41,123 nt of DNA, taken from positions 1 through 41,123 of the forward strand of contig CAMATX010000013.1 of NCBI GenBank assembly GCA_945861345.1, given 5' to 3'. This DNA is from Comamonas sp. lk (GTDB taxonomy: Bacteria > Pseudomonadota > Gammaproteobacteria > Burkholderiales > Burkholderiaceae_C). Position numbers and translations under genes: made by a program. Of this stretch, positions 3,086 to 10,814 are shown piece after piece. The notes below the pieces were generated by a model. The model did not search any database, was not told the origin of the DNA, and was given only the letters and a program-made list of their open reading frames with translations. How positions within the stretch are numbered: the first letter of the stretch is position 1; each line of letters starts with the position of its first letter.

Positions 3086-5668
3086 TTAGCCCGACTGAAG
3101 GCTTTTTTGAACCTTGGCGGCAATGTGCGCCAAAGCTTCGGGCACCTGGTCGACCAGCACCAGGCACAATTCGCCCGCTTGTAGGCGGTCCATCGCCGTG
3201 TCGATGGCCAAAAACTCACCATAAATTTCGCTGCGTTGCTGGGCTTTTTTGGCCTTGGCTAAGCCCTCGCGCAGCAGCGCCATGACTTCGCCGTCGGAGC
3301 GGCCGCGCTGGCACTGGTCCTCGTACATCACCACTTCCTCAAACGCGTCGCCCAATATCTGCGTGATTTGGCGGATGTCTTCGTCGCGCCGGTCGCCCGG
3401 CCCGCTGATCACCACCGAGCGGCGTGTCGCCGGCATGGCTTGCACTGCCTGCACCAAGGCCAGCATGGCATCGGGGTTGTGGCCGTAGTCGGCGATAACC
3501 GTCGCGCCTTTGTAATGAAACAAATTAAAGCGACCCATGGCATTGTTTTGCTCGGTAGAAAAACTCGCCAGCGCGGCGCGCACGGTGGACCAATCGAGCC
3601 CCAGCGCCCAGGCAGCCGCTACACTGGACATCACGTTTTCAACCTGGAAACCCACCGCGCCGCCCAAGGTGACCGGAATTTCGGCCAGGTTCAGGTAATG
3701 TTTTTCAGCGCCACGTGCGGCGACGATTTGATGGTTTTCGACGTACACCACCGCCCGCCCTTGGGCGCGGTGCGTGGCCATGATTGGGTTGAACTGGTCG
3801 AGCGCAAAAAAGATGACAGCACCTTTGCACTTGGCCGCCATGGCCGCAACCACCGGGTCGGCGGCGTTGAGCACGGCGGTGCCCCGGGGTGAAACGTTTT
3901 GCACGATGACGCGCTTGAGCACCGCCAATTCGTCCACGGTGGTGATGTAGTTCAGGCCCAAATGGTCACCACTGCCCACGTTGGTGACCACGCCGACGTC
4001 GCAGTAGTCAAAGGCCAGGCCCTCGCGCAGTACGCCACCGCGTGCGGTCTCGAGCACGGCGGCGTCGACATCGGGGTGGTGCAAGACATTTTTGGCACTC
4101 TTGGGGCCGCTGCAGTCGCCGGTGTCTATGCACTGGCCGCCCACGTAGACGCCGTCGGTGTTGGTCATGCCTACGCACCAGCCTTGCTGGGCCAGCAAAT
4201 GCGAGATCAGGCGCACGGTCGTTGTTTTGCCATTGGTGCCGGTGACCGCGACGATGGGTATGCGCCCATCCTGCCCCGGCTTGAAGAGGGCGGAAATGAT
4301 AGCCTCGCCCACCGGGCGGCCTTTGCCAAACGAGGGACTCAGGTGCATGCGCAAGCCCGGCGCTGCGTTGACCTCGACCACGCCGCCGCCTTGCTCCTCG
4401 ATCGGGCGCAAGATGCTGTCGCAGACCAAATCGACACCGCAAATATGCAAACCCACCATATGCGCCGCGGACACGGCCCGCGCAGCCACGTCGGGGTGCA
4501 CATCGTCGGTGACGTCGGTGGCCGAGCCGCCGGTGGACAGATTGGCGTTGTTGCGCAAGTTCACGCGCTGGCCTTTTTGCGGCACCGACGTGGCATCAAA
4601 GCCCTGGGCTTGCAGGCAGGTCAGCGCAATATCGTCAAAGCGGATTTTGGTGAGCGAGGTGGCGTGCCCATCGCCGCGACGAGGGTCCAGGTTGACAATA
4701 TCGACCAACTGCGCGACGGTGTGCACGCCATCGCCCACCACTTTGGGCGGGTCGCGCCGGGCAGCAGCCACCAGTTTGTCGCCCACCACCAGCAAGCGAA
4801 AATCGTTGCCCGGCATGTAGCGCTCCACCAGCACGGTGTCGCGAAACTCGCTGGCCACCAAATAGGCGGCGCGCAGCTCAGCCTCGGTGGTGATGTTGAC
4901 GGTTACGCCCTTGCCTTGGTTGCCATCGAGGGGCTTGAGCACCACGGGCAGGCCGATTTCTTGGGCCAGCGCCCAGGCGTCGTCGGCATCGCGCACGGCG
5001 CGTCCACGCGGTACCGGTACGCCGGCAGCGTGCAACAGGCGTTTGCTGAGTTCTTTGTCCTGGGCAATCGACTCGGCGATGGCGCTGGTGGCGTCAATCT
5101 CGGCGGCCTGAATGCGCCGCTGGCGGCTGCCCCAGCCAAAGCGCACCATGCTGCCTTCGGTCATACGGCTAAAGGGGATGTTGCGCGCCAAGGCGGCATT
5201 GACCACCGAACCGGTGCTCGGGCCCAGGCGCACGTCTTCATCGAGTTCGCGCAGCTGGTGCAGCACGGCGGCTAGGTCAAAGGAGGTGTTTTGCAAGGCA
5301 GAGTTGCATAGCTGCTCGGCCAACGCCAGGGCCAAGCGGCCCACCGCCTCTTCGCTGTATTCGACTACCACCTGGAACACACCGGCTTCCAGCGTCGGTT
5401 TGGTGCAGCTAAAGGTGACGGGGCAGCCCGCCTGGGCTTGCAGGCCCAGTGTGGCGAGTTCCAAAACGCGGGCCAGGGGCACGCCTTGGTCGTTGCCAAT
5501 CGGCGCAAAGGCGCTAATTTCGGGAAAACGCGCGCGCAAGCGCACCTCAAACCCGGCCAGGTCGCCGACCGCGCATTCCTCAGGGCTGCAGGTGACCACC
5601 GCCTGAACGGCGGTGTGGTGGCTCCACAGATTGGGGCCGCGCAGGGCGCGAATGCGGGTGACTTCCAT
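3086..5668 (-). CDS. cphA: Cyanophycin synthetase with intact Mur-ligase half
   Basis: An 860-residue CphA. Family knowledge: CphA builds cyanophycin, an Asp backbone with Arg side chains and a nitrogen/carbon store, using two ATP sites. An ATP-grasp domain adds Asp and a Mur-ligase-like domain adds Arg. Visible here are an N-domain (about 1-160), an ATP-grasp domain (about 195-460, with VVLKPLDGNQGKGV near 242-255 and VVEVNAAPG near 430-438), then the Mur P-loop GTNGKTTT (477-484) and the Mur C-domain with MGRFNLF (711-717) and ADYGHNPDAM (726-735). Length is normal for full CphA. The N-domain lacks the His/Glu-rich motif present in the upstream paralogue. It is second in an operon, 42 nt after cphA', so co-transcription is likely. 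Confidence 0.93.
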   Translation of the reverse strand: MEVTRIRALRGPNLWSHHTAVQAVVTCSPEECAVGDLAGFEVRLRARFPEISAFAPIGNDQGVPLARVLELATLGLQAQAGCPVTFSCTKPTLEAGVFQVVVEYSEEAVGRLALALAEQLCNSALQNTSFDLAAVLHQLRELDEDVRLGPSTGSVVNAALARNIPFSRMTEGSMVRFGWGSRQRRIQAAEIDATSAIAESIAQDKELSKRLLHAAGVPVPRGRAVRDADDAWALAQEIGLPVVLKPLDGNQGKGVTVNITTEAELRAAYLVASEFRDTVLVERYMPGNDFRLLVVGDKLVAAARRDPPKVVGDGVHTVAQLVDIVNLDPRRGDGHATSLTKIRFDDIALTCLQAQGFDATSVPQKGQRVNLRNNANLSTGGSATDVTDDVHPDVAARAVSAAHMVGLHICGVDLVCDSILRPIEEQGGGVVEVNAAPGLRMHLSPSFGKGRPVGEAIISALFKPGQDGRIPIVAVTGTNGKTTTVRLISHLLAQQGWCVGMTNTDGVYVGGQCIDTGDCSGPKSAKNVLHHPDVDAAVLETARGGVLREGLAFDYCDVGVVTNVGSGDHLGLNYITTVDELAVLKRVIVQNVSPRGTAVLNAADPVVAAMAAKCKGAVIFFALDQFNPIMATHRAQGRAVVYVENHQIVAARGAEKHYLNLAEIPVTLGGAVGFQVENVMSSVAAAWALGLDWSTVRAALASFSTEQNNAMGRFNLFHYKGATVIADYGHNPDAMLALVQAVQAMPATRRSVVISGPGDRRDEDIRQITQILGDAFEEVVMYEDQCQRGRSDGEVMALLREGLAKAKKAQQRSEIYGEFLAIDTAMDRLQAGELCLVLVDQVPEALAHIAAKVQKSLQSG

Positions 5669-5710
5669 AAATGAGCGTTCCGGGTGGCGGGCAGGGCGTT
5701 TCGGGCCGGT

Positions 5711-7885
5711 TTAGTACGGGGTTTTTTGCGGATTGGATTCAAAGGTGCGCAGGCCGGCGGCGATCAGCTCGGGGGCGATGTGCAGCGCCCAGGCAGCGGC
5801 GACGGCGGCCATCACCATTTCGGGCTGGGCCGCTTTGGTCGGCTTGAGGCTGCTCAGGCGCACCAGTGCTGTCTCGTTGGCGCCGGTGGCCAGCACCAAG
5901 GTGTTTTCGCGCAGGAAAACCACCTGGTGCCCCTGGGCGCGGTGCACAGCCAGCCTAGCATTGTCCGGCGACAAGGCATAAAAAATCACCCGGCCATCGC
6001 AAAGCTGCGCCAGTTCGGCCGCTTGGCTGTCTGCGGCGTTGATGACGGCGGTGCCCGTGGGCAGCACCACGTCGATTTGGGTGCGGATCACTTTGAAGTT
6101 CTGCTCGATGTCCAAGATGTCGAAGTCCTGCAGCGCCGGGTCCCAGGCGCTGTCAGTGACCAGGCCGACATCGCATTTGTCGTAGGCAAGGCCCTGGCCC
6201 AGGATGGTCGCGCACGGGTTTTCAAATACCGCTGCCTGTACCGAGCGGTTCATCAATATCCGCTGGCCTGCCTCCCAGTGGGTGCTGTCGGCGGCGTCCA
6301 CGCGCCGGCTGTCCAGGTATAGCCCTTCGCTACAAGCCAGGCCCACGTGCTTGCCGCTGATGTGGATCAGCCAGGCCACCAACCGGGCGATACGCCCGGT
6401 ATTGCCCGAGCCGGTGATACCCACCACCGGGATACGCCCGTCTTGCTTGCTGTCAAACAAATGGTCGATGATGGCGCGCCCAACCGGCTGCCCGGCGCCG
6501 TTGGCCGGCTTGATGTGCGACAGCAGGCCCGGACTGGCGTTGACCTCGATCACGGCGGCGAGCTGGCTGCTCAGGGGCTCGCTGCAGTCTTGTAGCACCA
6601 TGTCCACGCCGGCAATGTCCAGGCCCACCACGCGCGCGGCCAAGGCGGCCGCTGCCGCAACGCTGGGGTGAACCTGGTCGGTCACATCCAAGGCCACGTT
6701 GCCATTGCGCTGGATGAGCACGCGCTGGCCAGCGGCCGGCACCGACTGGGGCGTGAGGCCCACGCGCTCGAGCTCCAAAATCACTTCGGCACTTTCGCTG
6801 GGCACCACCACATTGAGCGGGAAGTCTTCGCCCCGGCCACGCCGGGGGTCGTTGTTGATTTGGGCGTTGGCCAACGCATCCAGCGTGCTGACGCCATCGC
6901 CCTGCACATACAGCAGCTCGCCACGCGCCGCTGCCACCATGCGCCGGCCCACCACCAGCAGGCGGTGTTCATCGCCGGGGATGAATTTTTCGACGATGAC
7001 GCTGCCCCCGCCTTTGCGATGCGCCAATTGGTAGGCGGCGCGGACATCGGTCTCGGAGCGCAAATCGAGCGAAACGCCGCGCCCGTGGTTGCCATCGTAG
7101 GGTTTGACCACCACCGGCACGCCCACACTTTGGGCCGCTTGCCAGGCGGCATCGGCACTTTGGACCAACTCGCCCTCGGGCACCGGCACGCCACAGGCTT
7201 TGAGCAAGGACTTGGTTAAATCTTTGTCGCCGGCAATTTCTTCGGCAATGGCGCTGGTTTGGTCGGTTTCGGCCGTCCAGATGCGCCGCTGGGCGATGCC
7301 GTAGCCCAGTTGCACTAAATTGCCCTCGGTCAGGCGCATGTGCGGGATGCGCCGGGCGGTTGCAGCGTCCACGATGTGCGCCGTGCTCGGGCCCAGACAC
7401 AGCGAGTCCACCATGTCGGTGAGCTCGGTGACGGCTGCGGCCATGTCAAACGCGCGGTCGTGGATGGCCGCCTCCAGCAAGTCGCGCCCCAGGTGCAGGG
7501 CGCGGCTCCCTACGTCTTCCTGGCGGGTGCGAAAAGCGACTTTGTAGATGCCGGGCTTGGAGGTTTGGCGCGCTTTGCCAAAGCCGGTGCGCATGCCGCC
7601 CAGGTTTTGCAGCTCCAGGCAGACGTGCTCCAGAATGTGGGCGGCCCAGGTGCCTTCTTGCAGGCGCTGCAAAAAGCCGCCGCGCACGCCCGGGCTGCAT
7701 TCGTGCTCAATCAGGCCGGGCAGCCAGGCCGTCAGGCGCTCGTAGAGGCCATCAATGGTGTTGGAGGGGAAGTCTTCGAGCGCACCGATGTCGACCCAGG
7801 CCTCAATGACGGGCCGATAAGTCCAGATGTTGGGGCCGCGCAGGTGGGTCACCCGCAAAATATCGATTTTTTTCTGGCGCGTCAT
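5711..7885 (-). CDS. Cyanophycin synthetase paralogue with degenerate, truncated Mur half (CphA'-type)
   Basis: A 724-residue CphA paralogue. The N-domain holds HECSPGVRGGFLQRL (61-75) and EGTWAAHILEHVCLELQ (77-93, with His83, Glu86 and His87), a pattern typical of canonical CphA. The ATP-grasp domain follows (about 210-475; VVVKPYDGNHGRGVSL at 258-273, VIEVNASPG at 445-453). The Mur-like P-loop is replaced by GITGSGNTGRIA (489-500): the lysine and TTT of GTNGKTTT are lost. The protein stops where the Mur C-terminal domain would begin, about 140 residues shorter than its neighbour. The Mur site is therefore probably inactive, while ATP-grasp chemistry may persist, as in cyanobacterial CphA2. 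The ATG at 7883-7885 precedes the conserved THLRGPNIW; upstream in-frame codons look non-coding. First gene of the minus-strand operon. Confidence 0.9.
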   Translation of the reverse strand: MTRQKKIDILRVTHLRGPNIWTYRPVIEAWVDIGALEDFPSNTIDGLYERLTAWLPGLIEHECSPGVRGGFLQRLQEGTWAAHILEHVCLELQNLGGMRTGFGKARQTSKPGIYKVAFRTRQEDVGSRALHLGRDLLEAAIHDRAFDMAAAVTELTDMVDSLCLGPSTAHIVDAATARRIPHMRLTEGNLVQLGYGIAQRRIWTAETDQTSAIAEEIAGDKDLTKSLLKACGVPVPEGELVQSADAAWQAAQSVGVPVVVKPYDGNHGRGVSLDLRSETDVRAAYQLAHRKGGGSVIVEKFIPGDEHRLLVVGRRMVAAARGELLYVQGDGVSTLDALANAQINNDPRRGRGEDFPLNVVVPSESAEVILELERVGLTPQSVPAAGQRVLIQRNGNVALDVTDQVHPSVAAAAALAARVVGLDIAGVDMVLQDCSEPLSSQLAAVIEVNASPGLLSHIKPANGAGQPVGRAIIDHLFDSKQDGRIPVVGITGSGNTGRIARLVAWLIHISGKHVGLACSEGLYLDSRRVDAADSTHWEAGQRILMNRSVQAAVFENPCATILGQGLAYDKCDVGLVTDSAWDPALQDFDILDIEQNFKVIRTQIDVVLPTGTAVINAADSQAAELAQLCDGRVIFYALSPDNARLAVHRAQGHQVVFLRENTLVLATGANETALVRLSSLKPTKAAQPEMVMAAVAAAWALHIAPELIAAGLRTFESNPQKTPY

Positions 7886-8058
7886 GCGTGGGGGTGGCCG
7901 CTTAAGTCCACCGAGCTGGTTCGTCGTGCGTTGTGTATTCTCGCCGATTGCGGGAAGGTTTCTTGGCTTGCAAAGCGCTTGGGGCGGCTTGCGCGGTCGG
8001 GCCGGGGCCGATTGGACGGACAATTGCGCAAGTTTTTTTAATTTCACCATGGACCTAC
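7886..8058. promoter_or_regulatory. Divergent intergenic region between cphA' and the ABC exporter
   Basis: These 173 bases separate two divergent cyanophycin-related operons and must hold both promoters. The palindrome TTGCGCAA (8024-8031) followed by a T-rich run (8033-8039) lies just upstream of the forward gene. A six-codon ATG frame (8049-8069) overlaps the start at 8059. I cannot assign -35/-10 boxes with confidence. Confidence 0.4.
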
Positions 8059-10332
8059 ATGAACATTGACCAAGCGCCCGGCCTGCCCGGCGCGGGTGAT
8101 ATTCCAGCGCCGTGGCAATCGGTTGTTCAAGCGCTGCTCGCTCCCCAAGAAAACGTTTTTGCGGTCCTTGAGGTTGACCTGGACACCCAATTGCGTTTTC
8201 AGCCCAGCCTTTTGCTGGCAACGGACCGCCGACTTTTATGGGTGCCAACCGCCAAAGCCGAGGTGCAAAGCTGGGATTACCGGCCCGGTTTGCGCCTGGA
8301 GCACCACGACCACGCCGGTCTGGCACACCTGCAATTGCTGGACACGGCCCAGCTTTTGGCCCATTGGCGCTTTACCTTGGGGCGCAATTTGCAGGCCTTG
8401 CGCCTGGTGGACCAGTTCAGCGCCCGGCATAACAGCGCGCTGAGCGGCCAGCCGGTGCCAGTACCGGCCCAGGCCGTGTGCCCGAGCTGCAAAGCGCCGC
8501 TAGACCCCGAGGCCGAGGAATGCCCGGTCTGTACCAAAGTCGTGCATACGGCGCCTTCGACCTGGACTTTGCTACGCCTGTGGCGTTTTGCCAAACCCTA
8601 TCGGGGCCAGTTGCTGTGGGGCTTTGTCCTCATGCTCTTGGGCACAGCGGCCAGCCAGGTGCCGCCGTACCTGACCATTCCCCTTGTGGACGAGGTGCTG
8701 ATCCCGCTTCAAAACGGAGAAAACATTCCGACTGAGAAAATTGTTTGGTATCTGGGTGGTTTGCTGGGCTCAGGTTTATTGGCCTGGATTTTGAGCTGGG
8801 CCAAGACCTACATCCTGGCGCTGGCTTCGGAGCGCATCGCGGCCGATTTGCGCACCACCACCTACGAGCATTTGCTGCGCCTGTCGTTGGAGTATTTCGG
8901 CGGCAAACGCACCGGCGACCTGCTCTCGCGCGTGGGCAGCGAGAGTGACCGTATTGCCGTCTACCTATCGCTGCACCTGACCGACTTTGCCAGCGATGTG
9001 GTGATGATCACCATGACGGCCGTGATTTTGTTCTCGATGAACCCGTGGCTGGCGCTCATTACGCTGGTGCCGCTGCCCTTTATCGGCTGGATGATCCACT
9101 ACGTGCGCTACCGCCTGCGCACCGGTTTTGAAAAAATCGACCGCGTCTGGGGCGAAGTGACCAATATTTTGGCCGACACCATTCCTGGTATCCGCGTGGT
9201 CAAGGCCTTTGCCCAAGAGCAGCGCGAGGCCAAGCGCTTTGCCGAGGCGAACCGGTACAACCTGCTGGTCAACGACCGGATCAACAAAATCTGGTCCTTG
9301 TTCTCGCCCTCGGTGTCTTTGCTCACCGAGATGGGCTTGCTGGTCGTCTGGGGTTTTGGCATATGGCAGGTGGCCCACGGGCAAATTACCGTGGGTATGT
9401 TGCTGGCGGCTATTGCCTACATCGGGCGCTTTTACGGGCGGCTGGACTCGATGAGCCGCATCGTCTCGGTGACGCAAAAGTCGGCCTCGGCGGCCAAGCG
9501 CATTTTTGACATTTTGGACCACGTCTCCAGCGTGCCCGAGCCGCAAAACCCGGTGCATGTGGACCGGGTGCAGGGCCACATCGTGCTACGTGAGGTGGGT
9601 TTTCGCTATGGCAACCGCGCCGTCAACCGGGGCATCAACCTGAACATTGCGCCCGGGGAAATGATCGGCCTGGTTGGCCACAGCGGTTCTGGAAAAAGTA
9701 CGCTGGTCAACCTGATTTGCCGCTTTTATGACGTCTCCGAGGGCGCGATTTTGGTCGATGGCGTGGACATCCGCTCTTACGCGATTGCCGATTTCCGGCG
9801 CAATATCGGGCTGGTTTTGCAAGAGCCGTTTTTGTTTTTCGGCACCATTGCCGACAACATCGCCTACGGCAAACCCGATGCCACGCGCGCCGAGATCATT
9901 GCGGCTGCGCGCGCCGCCCATGCCCACGAGTTCATCTTGCGCCTGCCGCATGGTTACGACTCCATGGTTGGCGAGCGCGGCCAGGGCCTGTCGGGCGGCG
10001 AGCGCCAGCGCATCTCGATCGCACGCGCTTTGCTGATTGACCCGCGCATTTTGATTTTGGACGAGGCCACGTCCTCTGTGGACTCCGAGACTGAAAAAGA
10101 GATCCAAAAAGCCCTGGAAAACCTGGTCCAGGGCCGCACCACGATTGCCATTGCGCACCGCCTCTCGACCCTGCACCGCGCCGACCGTTTGGTGGTGCTG
10201 GACCGGGGTCGCGTCGTCGAGGAGGGCAGCCACGATGTGCTCATGGCCCAGCAAGGCGCTTACTTCAACCTCTACCAAGCCCAGGCGCGCAATGCCGAGA
10301 CGCTCGATGGGATCGCCGGGAGCCCGCCATGA
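8059..10332 (+). CDS. Cyanophycin-associated ABC exporter with N-terminal PH-like and zinc-ribbon extension
   Basis: A 757-residue half-transporter fusing membrane and ATPase domains. Residues 1-125 form a soluble domain with LLLATDRRLLWVP (51-63), resembling bacterial PH-like folds. A four-cysteine zinc ribbon CPSC...CPVC follows (141-158). Residues about 185-470 form an ABC exporter membrane domain, and the ATPase has Walker A GHSGSGKST (540-548), signature LSGGERQ (644-650), Walker B ILILDEATS (664-672) and the switch His700. It resembles the transporter annotated in Burkholderiales as cyanophycin metabolism-associated; the cargo is unknown. It is divergent from the two synthetases and overlaps the DUF1854 start by 4 nt. 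The start is set at 8059 because the 42 upstream in-frame codons (from 7933) look non-coding; the ribosome-binding site is weak. Confidence 0.85.
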   Translation: MNIDQAPGLPGAGDIPAPWQSVVQALLAPQENVFAVLEVDLDTQLRFQPSLLLATDRRLLWVPTAKAEVQSWDYRPGLRLEHHDHAGLAHLQLLDTAQLLAHWRFTLGRNLQALRLVDQFSARHNSALSGQPVPVPAQAVCPSCKAPLDPEAEECPVCTKVVHTAPSTWTLLRLWRFAKPYRGQLLWGFVLMLLGTAASQVPPYLTIPLVDEVLIPLQNGENIPTEKIVWYLGGLLGSGLLAWILSWAKTYILALASERIAADLRTTTYEHLLRLSLEYFGGKRTGDLLSRVGSESDRIAVYLSLHLTDFASDVVMITMTAVILFSMNPWLALITLVPLPFIGWMIHYVRYRLRTGFEKIDRVWGEVTNILADTIPGIRVVKAFAQEQREAKRFAEANRYNLLVNDRINKIWSLFSPSVSLLTEMGLLVVWGFGIWQVAHGQITVGMLLAAIAYIGRFYGRLDSMSRIVSVTQKSASAAKRIFDILDHVSSVPEPQNPVHVDRVQGHIVLREVGFRYGNRAVNRGINLNIAPGEMIGLVGHSGSGKSTLVNLICRFYDVSEGAILVDGVDIRSYAIADFRRNIGLVLQEPFLFFGTIADNIAYGKPDATRAEIIAAARAAHAHEFILRLPHGYDSMVGERGQGLSGGERQRISIARALLIDPRILILDEATSSVDSETEKEIQKALENLVQGRTTIAIAHRLSTLHRADRLVVLDRGRVVEEGSHDVLMAQQGAYFNLYQAQARNAETLDGIAGSPP

Positions 10333-10814
10333 TCGCAACCGCCAGGGCAGCCGATTTCCAGCTGCACCGCACCCCCTTTGGCAAGCTGGTGCTCACCGAT
10401 GCCACGGGCACCGAGCACACGCCGGTTTTGCCTGTGCGCGCTTTTCCGATCCAGGCGCCCGAGGACGGCGTGTCTTTGCTCAGCAGCGACGGCCACGAGC
10501 TGGCCTGGATTGAGCGCCTGGATGATTTGCCGCCCGCGCACCAAACTCTGGTGCGCGAGGAGCTGGCGCGCCGTGAATTTATGCCCACGCTGCAGCGCAT
10601 TGAGGGCGTGAGTAGTTTTTCCACGCCCTGCACCTGGACGGTGGAAACCGACCGCGGCCGCTGCGAGTTTGTGCTGCGTGGCGACGAGGACATCCGGCGC
10701 ATCGGTGCGCAGCACAGCTTGCTGATTGCCGACGCGCACGGCATTCATTATTTCGTGCCCGATTCGCTGGCACTCGATGCGCACAGCCGGCGCATCCTGG
10801 ACCGTTTTTTGTAG
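10329..10814 (+). CDS. DUF1854 family protein, cyanophycin-associated
   Basis: A 161-residue soluble protein with no signal peptide or membrane segment. It matches my recollection of DUF1854, a family of unknown biochemistry repeatedly found beside cyanophycin genes and this ABC exporter in Burkholderiales. Visible landmarks are HRTPFGKLVLTD near residue 14, PVRAFPIQAPEDGVSLL near 35, RREFMPTLQRI near 82 and GDEDIRRIG near 120. Its ATG overlaps the exporter stop (ATGA), which indicates translational coupling and a shared role, perhaps as an accessory cytoplasmic subunit. That role is inference only. Confidence 0.8.
   Translation: MIATARAADFQLHRTPFGKLVLTDATGTEHTPVLPVRAFPIQAPEDGVSLLSSDGHELAWIERLDDLPPAHQTLVREELARREFMPTLQRIEGVSSFSTPCTWTVETDRGRCEFVLRGDEDIRRIGAQHSLLIADAHGIHYFVPDSLALDAHSRRILDRFL

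What the first reader, a model, noticed from the sequence alone, without database searches (positions are those of the whole stretch)
3086..7885. Tandem cyanophycin synthetases degenerate in complementary halves
cphA' (5711-7885) keeps the N-domain motif with HECSPGVRGGF and HILEH (His83, Glu86, His87) and the ATP-grasp domain, but its Mur P-loop is GSGNTGRIA and the Mur C-domain is gone. cphA (3086-5668) has intact ATP-grasp and Mur sites (GTNGKTTT, ADYGHNPDAM), but its N-domain lacks that His/Glu motif. In canonical CphA1 the N-domain has been described as carrying a cryptic metallopeptidase-like site that makes primers; here primer formation and Arg addition seem to be split over two proteins. 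I infer either a hetero-oligomer or a division of labour in which cphA' trims or primes (or reuses dipeptides, CphA2-like) and cphA polymerises.
Basis: partly seen in the sequence, partly recalled or inferred. Interest (0 to 1): 0.75.

Follow-up and report, generated by a model that had tools for sequence, protein, structure and literature searches.

The report
Split cyanophycin synthetase: primer-cutter plus polymerase
Two neighbouring genes look like one amino-acid-polymer-making enzyme divided in two, with one copy keeping only the site thought to cut starter pieces and the other keeping the polymer-building sites, and the pair recurs in many related bacteria beside a transporter gene.

Summary
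CphA' (5711-7885, -) keeps the full Cx19HxxEH metal site that makes primers in CphA1; CphA (3086-5668, -) lacks it. The split is clade-wide: the motif is in 81/81 CphA' and 0/79 paired CphA, and in 80/80 and 0/76 at named loci; 26/27 unpaired CphA1 have it. CphA' has lost the Arg-adding M site and the Asp-recognising part of the G site, though ATP/Mg residues remain, so "keeps ATP-grasp" is half right. Of 235 M-core columns 9 are invariant in CphA', including both M residues known to touch polymer in the N site. DUF1854 is in 137/138 pair-type genomes and none of the other 261 sampled. Cyanophycinase is in 9/80 pair genomes against 32/32 single-CphA1 genomes. Best reading: a duplicated CphA1 subfunctionalised into primer-cutting CphA' and polymerising CphA. 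Interaction, activity, product and export are untested. Tandem copies, an ABC neighbour and missing cyanophycinase are in print; I did not see the complementary site split in the papers my searches listed.

The parts
5711..7885 (-). cphA' (724 aa): degenerate CphA1 paralogue that keeps the N-domain metallopeptidase-type site
   Evidence: ORF; PRK14016 983 bits against cut-off 877, TIGR02068 685 against cut-off 850 (scanned on the longer ORF 5711-8326); AF2 pLDDT 89.3; SuCphA1 entries rank first in the fold search (7lgj, TM 0.86; 7txv, TM 0.88)
7391..7864 (-). N domain of CphA' (about residues 8-165)
   Evidence: Pfam PF18921, 124 bits; alignment to 7lg5
7625..7705 (-). N-site motif H61-x-C63 ... 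x19 ... H83-x-x-E86-H87 (Cx19HxxEH)
   Evidence: aligned to SuCphA1 H57, C59, H79, E82, H83; present in 81/81 CphA'
6692..6721 (-). shortened G-omega loop (VLIQRNGNVA), 5 residues shorter than in CphA1
   Evidence: Te384-404 span is 16 residues in 80 of 81 CphA' (6 in the other) against 21 in all 79 CphA and 27 singles
6386..6412 (-). decayed Mur P-loop of CphA' (GSGNTGRIA)
6071..6085 (-). CphA' R601 and D605, equivalents of SuCphA1 S603 and E607, the M-domain residues that touch polymer in the N site
   Evidence: invariant in 81/81 CphA'; contacts from PMC9262961 passage
3086..5668 (-). cphA (860 aa): CphA1-type polymerase without the N site
   Evidence: ORF; TIGR02068 984 bits against cut-off 850; AF2 pLDDT 84.4
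4217..4240 (-). intact Mur P-loop GTNGKTTT of CphA
3470..3493 (-). intact Mur C-terminal motif ADYGHNPD of CphA
3299..3325 (-). YEDQCQRGR motif of CphA, in place of the EDDDxRGR of two cyanobacterial CphA1; possible side-chain specificity loop
   Evidence: specificity role inferred from MurE (recalled)
7886..8058 (.). short divergent intergenic region between cphA' and the ABC gene (assumes ABC start at 8059)
   Evidence: start inferred from where the NF052233 match begins
7933..10332 (+). ABC transporter, membrane domain plus ATPase, divergent from cphA' (probable start 8059)
   Evidence: NF052233 'cyanophycin metabolism-associated ABC transporter', 1367 bits against cut-off 880; next best MsbA model; Pfam ABC_membrane and ABC_tran; beside 77 of 80 named CphA' loci
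10329..10814 (+). DUF1854 protein
   Evidence: NF052234 'cyanophycin metabolism-associated DUF1854 family protein', 233 bits against cut-off 150; Pfam PF08909; in 137/138 pair-type genomes

Best explanation
An ancestral CphA1 that carried all three sites was duplicated, and the copies divided its work. CphA' keeps the N-domain metal site (Cys63, His83, Glu86, His87) and supplies the endo-cyanophycinase cut that makes short primers. Its M site is dead and its G site can no longer recognise aspartate, so it mostly acts as a scaffold around the N site. CphA keeps the G and M sites and elongates chains. It has lost the N site, so alone it should be primer-dependent. The two are probably co-transcribed and assemble in one oligomer, since the solved CphA1s are dimers or tetramers, so the nascent chain can be cut in trans. 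Shown here: site retention and loss, conservation, co-inheritance, phylogeny and gene order. Inferred: catalysis, primer making, co-transcription and hetero-oligomerisation. Rough sub-probabilities: CphA' N site is an active cyanophycin-type peptidase serving CphA's product, 0.75; physical hetero-oligomer, 0.5; product is Asp-Arg cyanophycin rather than a relative, 0.55.
For: N site: motif in 81/81 CphA', 0/79 paired CphA; 80/80 and 0/76 at named loci; 26/27 unpaired CphA1 (10 of them with exactly x19, the rest with a longer spacer up to x23). The M residues contacting polymer in the N site (Su S603, E607) are invariant R and D in 81/81 CphA', among only 9 invariant of 235 M-core columns; in CphA E607 is Gln in 59 of 79. 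Drawing both by chance has p about 0.0013 (my arithmetic, 36/27495). Conservation by domain over 75 pairs (1200 sampled comparisons), CphA' against CphA: N 0.63/0.59, G-omega 0.54/0.71, M-core 0.48/0.68. Tree without the N domain: each of the two is one side of a branch, support 100. Where the G domain itself decays (L100, L103, L124; L124 shows only the N domain to Pfam) the N site still stands. Estimated gap CphA' to CphA: median 32 bp, at most 150 bp in 74 of 76. An engineered N-G+M+/N+G-M- SuCphA1 heterodimer has similar activity to the all-in-one arrangement with primer and is somewhat less active without (PMC9262961 section 10).
Against: No biochemistry was done. A review reports that the R. 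eutropha (Cupriavidus necator) H16 cyanophycin synthetase homologues gave no detectable cyanophycin in the native host or in E. coli (PMC8560796, passage, citing Adames 2013, not read). CphA has Gln instead of catalytic His267 in 75/79, and H267A is the G-minus mutation of SuCphA1; E215 is never Glu in 79 CphA. ATP/Mg residues of CphA' are kept in 79 or more of 81 and its G-core identity equals CphA's, so its G domain probably still does something. Not all N-site contacts are kept: E90 is mostly Asn and T101 mostly Ala in CphA', and R603 is also in 69/79 CphA. The N-domain conservation difference is small (0.63 against 0.59). Tetramer residue W672 is not conserved in either protein. N-site loss is not special to paired CphA: further CphA-type genes beside cyanophycinase in some pair-bearing genomes also lack it. 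The loss in CphA may be one ancestral event, so the counts are not independent trials.
Confidence: 0.66

Rival explanations
1. CphA' is a stand-alone endo-cyanophycinase used for breakdown. It replaces the missing cyanophycinase and mobilises or shortens polymer made by CphA, with no complex needed.
For: Cyanophycinase (TIGR02069) is over cut-off in only 9 of 80 pair genomes searched (of 138), in none of them at the pair locus, against 32 of 32 single-CphA1 genomes. Papers also note tandem synthetases without cyanophycinase (PMC5178258; PMC5670224; PMC10687191).
Against: The SuCphA1 N site is slow and yields mainly 4-mers from short test substrates, not dipeptides (PMC9262961). The genes are tightly linked, which suits joint synthesis better than opposed turnover. 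The M-core fold is kept with high model confidence, which a simple hydrolase may not need.
Confidence: 0.2
2. CphA' is a CphA2-like enzyme whose altered G site joins beta-Asp-Arg dipeptides or another nucleophile instead of aspartate, recycling units.
For: Like CphA2 it lacks the Mur P-loop and, mostly, Mlid (CphA2 description in PMC9427784, passage). ATP/Mg residues, R309 and mostly H267 are kept, while R323 to Gly (78/81) and R458 to Leu (76/81) look like fixed replacements rather than drift.
Against: CphA2 sequences lack the N motif and have low N-domain identity to CphA1 (PMC9262961). Fold match is better to CphA1 (TM 0.80-0.88, 30-36% identity) than to CphA2 (TM 0.60-0.66, 19-22%). The tree places CphA' next to CphA, though no CphA2 was in it. 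Three CphA' outside the order have lost G-site residues without losing the N site. CphA2 residues at the aspartate site were not compared here.
Confidence: 0.12
3. The N site in CphA' is a conserved relic or structural zinc site and CphA' is a non-catalytic scaffold or chaperone for CphA.
For: M and aspartate sites are lost; the M-core fold is modelled with high confidence.
Against: The general base E82 and second-shell residues H57, R70, E87 and Y110 are invariant in 81/81 along with the ligands. A structural site would not need them all.
Confidence: 0.08
4. The tandem is ordinary redundancy: two cyanophycin synthetases of which one is decaying to a pseudogene.
For: The M domain of CphA' is variable and often truncated.
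Against: DUF1854, which marks the locus, occurs in 63 sampled genera of the order, and in the CphA' read from 60 sampled genomes plus the window the N site is invariant and the G-core about as conserved as that of CphA (75 pairs).
Confidence: 0.02

Closest known systems
CphA1 with N-site (SuCphA1, PDB 7lg5/7txv)
   Same: Same three-domain family, same Cx19HxxEH site with second shell in CphA', same G and M architecture in CphA
   Different: One polypeptide there, two here; each protein is missing what the other keeps
Cupriavidus necator (R. eutropha) H16 cphA/cphA' pair (Adames 2013, not read; cited in PMC8560796)
   Same: Probably the same tandem kind: loci of six other Cupriavidus genomes carry the pair, H16 itself was not fetched; I recall that paper noting a J-loop loss in CphA', which would match the shortened loop here
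   Different: It predates the N-site paper (2022), so the complementary split could not have been read then; Cupriavidus CphA' keeps Mlid, the window's does not
Two-cphA plus ABC transporter 'Group 1' cluster of activated-sludge bacteria (PMC10687191, section 11 read)
   Same: Two cphA copies, ABC gene, no cphB
   Different: That section does not examine active sites or mention DUF1854, and reads flanking insertion sequences as a possible transposon
CphA2 (PDB 7ta5, 8fxh)
   Same: No functional M site
   Different: CphA2 is described as lacking the N motif; CphA' is closer to CphA1 in sequence and fold
Primer-dependent CphA1 of Tatumella morbirosei (PDB 7lgn)
   Same: Like the paired CphA it lacks the N site (PMC9262961)
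   Different: No CphA'-type partner is mentioned for it in the passages read; its genome was not examined here

Membership tests
Cyanophycin synthetase family (NCBIfam PRK14016 / TIGR02068) | score over curated cut-off | tested here: met
   CphA meets both (1234 and 984 bits). CphA' meets PRK14016 (983 against 877) but not the TIGR02068 equivalog (685 against 850)
Primer-independent CphA1 | all of N, G and M sites in one chain | tested here: not met
   CphA lacks the N site; CphA' lacks the M site and the Asp-recognition part of the G site
Primer-independent CphA1 | Cx19HxxEH in the N domain | tested here: met
   met by CphA' only: 81/81, against 0/79 paired CphA
CphA2 | M P-loop and Mlid missing | tested here: met
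   window CphA' lacks both; 10 of 80 named CphA' keep Mlid
CphA2 | N motif absent | tested here: not met
   CphA' has it in 81/81
CphA2 | polymerises beta-Asp-Arg dipeptides | not testable with these tools
   needs enzyme assay
Cyanophycin-metabolism-associated ABC/DUF1854 locus (NF052233, NF052234) | both neighbours over curated cut-off | tested here: met
   1367 against 880 and 233 against 150 bits
M16-like (inverted zinc) metallopeptidase activity of the CphA1 N domain | Zn-dependent endo-cleavage of cyanophycin | not testable with these tools
   residues present; activity not assayed
Hetero-oligomeric enzyme | CphA-CphA' contact | not tested
   no complex prediction was available; an apparent fusion frame in one genome was only an overlong open frame

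The most novel reading that the evidence does not exclude
The four genes form a biosynthesis-and-export system rather than a storage system. CphA makes a cyanophycin-type chain, possibly with a different side chain. CphA' cuts it to short oligomers with the relocated N site. The ABC exporter and DUF1854 protein then move the oligomers out of the cytoplasm. This would explain why cyanophycinase is usually absent and why no cyanophycin was reported from the C. necator H16 genes.
Probability: 0.25. Interest if true: 0.87.

Novelty: new variant of a known kind. Interest (0 to 1): 0.68.

Why it matters
The authors of the N-site paper knew of no other polymerase with a dedicated active site for making its own primers (PMC9262961, discussion). 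A natural system that has placed that site on a dedicated partner would show that the cut can work in trans. It would give a two-protein system in which primer making and elongation can be dosed separately. It also offers a testable reason why the C. necator H16 synthetases gave no cyanophycin. The near-perfect link with an ABC gene and DUF1854, and the usual lack of cyanophycinase, suggest that the betaproteobacterial genes annotated as cyanophycin storage may do something else.

Tried and rejected
Gene fusion as evidence of contact: frames of 1575 and 1647 aa in two genomes looked like CphA'-CphA fusions. The DNA showed only an upstream open frame in G115 and two separate ORFs in G240, so this was dropped.

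CphA2 identity for CphA': rejected as family membership (see membership test). I could not line up CphA2 residues at the aspartate site, because the structure search prints only the best five alignments. Two ATP-grasp proteins fetched in the hope of reaching CphA2 through them (L236, L237) were only distant CphA relatives and were not taken further.

Conservation of W672, the SuCphA1 tetramer residue, gave no support. Site geometry in the models was not measured.

Literature: no paper in the library holds both 'J-loop' and 'cyanophycin synthetase', nor at least two of the two H16 locus tags and 'cyanophycin'. None of the ten papers listed holds DUF1854, and papers with both terms would be listed first. 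The exact NF052233 name does not occur in the twelve listed papers.

Dropped, biased or limited rows: a second fragment of one broken CphA ORF (L024) was dropped, and L024 was left out. L118 and L147 were left out of one singles comparison, and L118 out of the tree. The 27 singles were found by similarity to CphA', which may favour N-site carriers; the published share of CphA1 with the motif is 83% (PMC9262961). L147 is counted as a single although it lies at an ABC/DUF1854 locus. The genome of L118 was not searched for DUF1854 or cyanophycinase. One search scored only two candidates per genome, so 'two matches' is a floor, and both genes were not inspected in all 138 pair-type genomes. One search covered 80 of 138. 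The tree used 21 of 81 CphA' and 22 of 79 CphA. The printed rows were cut; one search recounts them. An earlier count said no CphA keeps H83; one search shows one (L054) does, so that note is wrong.
Full report
WHAT IS THERE. Two same-strand genes with a 42 bp gap encode CphA' (724 aa, 7885 to 5711) and CphA (860 aa, 5668 to 3086). Both are cyanophycin synthetase family members. A search of the window's genome finds no other full-length CphA-type gene. Facing away from cphA' lie an ABC transporter (NF052233) and a DUF1854 protein (NF052234), both over their curated cut-offs and both already named 'cyanophycin metabolism-associated' by NCBI.

THE N SITE. In SuCphA1 the residues C59, H79, E82 and H83 form a metal site that cuts cyanophycin into primers. 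E82Q removes primer-independent activity, and 83% of CphA1s (nr70) carry the motif (PMC9262961, passages and sections 10 and 12). CphA' matches every ligand, the general base and the second shell (H57, R70, E87, Y110). All seven core residues are present in 61/61 CphA' of the first set. In the enlarged set the Cx19HxxEH motif, searched without any alignment, is in 81/81 CphA' and 0/79 paired CphA; the aligned Cys is absent from all 79, and one CphA (L054) keeps HxxEH. Of 27 unpaired CphA1, 26 have all four residues, the exception being the divergent L118; 10 have exactly x19 and 16 a spacer of up to x23. In 80 named loci, the best 80 of 588 confirmed relatives found with G-domain patterns, it is 80/80 and 0/76. 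A tree of G plus M-core columns, with 21 CphA', 22 CphA and 28 others, puts each of the two on one side of a branch with support 100, so the division of the rows in it does not rest on the N site.

THE OTHER SITES. CphA': the Mur P-loop is variable, the residue aligned to the M-domain Lys602 is Lys in 1 of 61, and Mlid is absent from the window and from most relatives (kept in 7 of 81 and 10 of 80; the 10 are six Cupriavidus, one Ralstonia, two Achromobacter and one unclassified). In the G domain K220, K261, R309, D431, E450 and N452 are each kept in 79 or more of 81. R323 is Gly in 78 and R458 is Leu in 76 of 81, and the loop that carries Asn394 in TeCphA1 is 16 instead of 21 residues in 80 of 81. 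In TeCphA1 these three recognise the incoming aspartate (PMC9427784, passages). The fixed replacements, and a G-core identity (0.70) equal to CphA's (0.71), suggest the CphA' G domain still has a role, which I cannot name. CphA: aspartate and Mur residues are kept, but H267 is Gln in 75/79 and E215 is Ser or Ala in 71/79.

INDEPENDENT SUPPORT FOR THE N SITE AS THE KEPT FUNCTION OF CphA'. Only 9 of 235 M-core columns are invariant in 81 CphA'. Two of them align with S603 and E607, the only M-domain residues named as touching polymer in the N site. In unpaired CphA1s these columns vary. In CphA E607 is Gln in 59 of 79, but R603 is also common there (69 of 79). Other contacts named in the paper are not all kept: E90 is mostly Asn and T101 mostly Ala in CphA'. 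Three CphA' outside the order (L100, L103, L124) have lost G-site residues; in L124 part of the G domain is missing and Pfam sees only the N domain. All three keep the N site.

EVOLUTION. CphA and CphA' lie side by side inside a well-supported clade. One relative, L147/L238 in genome G900, has DUF1854 and ABC facing a CphA with the N site, the full Asp loop and the Mur site, plus the Gln267 of paired CphA. It may be the unsplit ancestral state, but its contig ends inside the gene, so a second copy downstream is not excluded; only one CphA-type match was found in that genome, it carries 8% contamination, and its grouping with CphA is weakly supported (82). A search of 80 genomes (G900 and relatives) found no other such case.

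DISTRIBUTION AND PARTNERS. 146 of 399 sampled genomes of the order have a CphA-type match (65 of 165 genera). Eight of these carry a single CphA; in seven a Mur-ligase-like gene lies nearby on the same contig, and all eight CphAs have the N site. Of the remaining 138 pair-type genomes 137 have DUF1854, and none of the other 261 genomes does. The one miss, G300, runs off its contig inside the ABC gene. Outside the order three of three pair genomes and G900 have DUF1854, and 0 of 32 single-CphA1 genomes (eight of them from the order) do. At the 80 named loci the ABC gene is present in 77 and DUF1854 in 73. Six of the seven DUF1854 misses run off a contig end, and one (L220) does not. Cyanophycinase is over cut-off in 32 of 32 single-CphA1 genomes, within about 6 kb of CphA1 in 28 by my reading of coordinates. 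It is in 9 of 80 pair genomes searched, in each away from the pair, and in 0 of the 4 DUF1854-bearing genomes outside the order. Against a simple rule, several of the nine also carry further CphA-type genes beside the cyanophycinase, and those that could be read there lack the N site, so N-site loss is not confined to CphA with a CphA' partner.

MECHANISM. The most economical reading is subfunctionalisation of a duplicated CphA1. CphA' provides the primer-making cut and CphA elongates. The engineered N-G+M+/N+G-M- SuCphA1 heterodimer, the same division made by mutation, works, though somewhat less well without primer. Whether CphA' and CphA touch is untested. The ABC neighbour and usual lack of cyanophycinase leave open that the product leaves the cell. 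The changed loop YEDQCQRGR (EDDDxRGR in the two cyanobacterial enzymes; other singles vary too) leaves the side chain open.

WHAT IS KNOWN. Tandem cphA genes in betaproteobacteria, an ABC neighbour and missing cyanophycinase are in print (PMC10687191 section 11; PMC5178258 passages; PMC5670224 passages). The statement in PMC5178258 that no betaproteobacterial genome then available had cyanophycinase does not hold for my sample of the order. PMC10687191 also reports two cphA in series with a cphB in Tetrasphaera (passage), which I did not examine. Lack of detectable cyanophycin from the H16 genes is reported in PMC8560796 (passage), citing Adames 2013, which I did not read. In the listings of the ten searches and the passages read I saw no statement that the N site is kept in one copy and lost in the other. 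Most subscription papers are not in the library, so novelty is provisional.

Noticed in passing
L249, L251, L253 (genomes G092, G286, G312): Some pair-bearing genomes also have a separate cyanophycinase locus with two further CphA-type genes; where the N-terminal part could be read these lack the N site.
   Followed up: partly
L073-L080 (genomes G077, G221, G121, G296, G191, G277, G158, G147): Single CphA with an intact N site; in seven of eight a Mur-ligase-like gene lies nearby, and all eight genomes have a cyanophycinase, a different cluster type from the window's.
   Followed up: partly
window 3299-3325: The CphA loop YEDQCQRGR differs from EDDDxRGR of two cyanobacterial CphA1 and has the form Y/F-E/Q-D-x-C-Q-R-G-R in most paired CphA, so the side-chain amino acid may not be arginine.
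   Followed up: partly
window CphA residue aligned to TeCphA1 H267 (in GNQGKG): Paired CphA carries Gln where the catalytic His267 stands, in 75 of 79; the relative in G900 shares it.
   Followed up: partly
window 7933-10332: The ABC protein has a long N-terminal extension with a CxxC...CxxC zinc-ribbon-like stretch before the membrane domain (read from the sequence).
   Followed up: no
L124 (G513) and L245 (G415): Two CphA' with internal deletions in the G domain that keep the N-site motif.
   Followed up: partly
PMC10687191 (passage): Tetrasphaera is reported to have two cphA in series next to cphB; whether that tandem shows the same site split was not checked.
   Followed up: no
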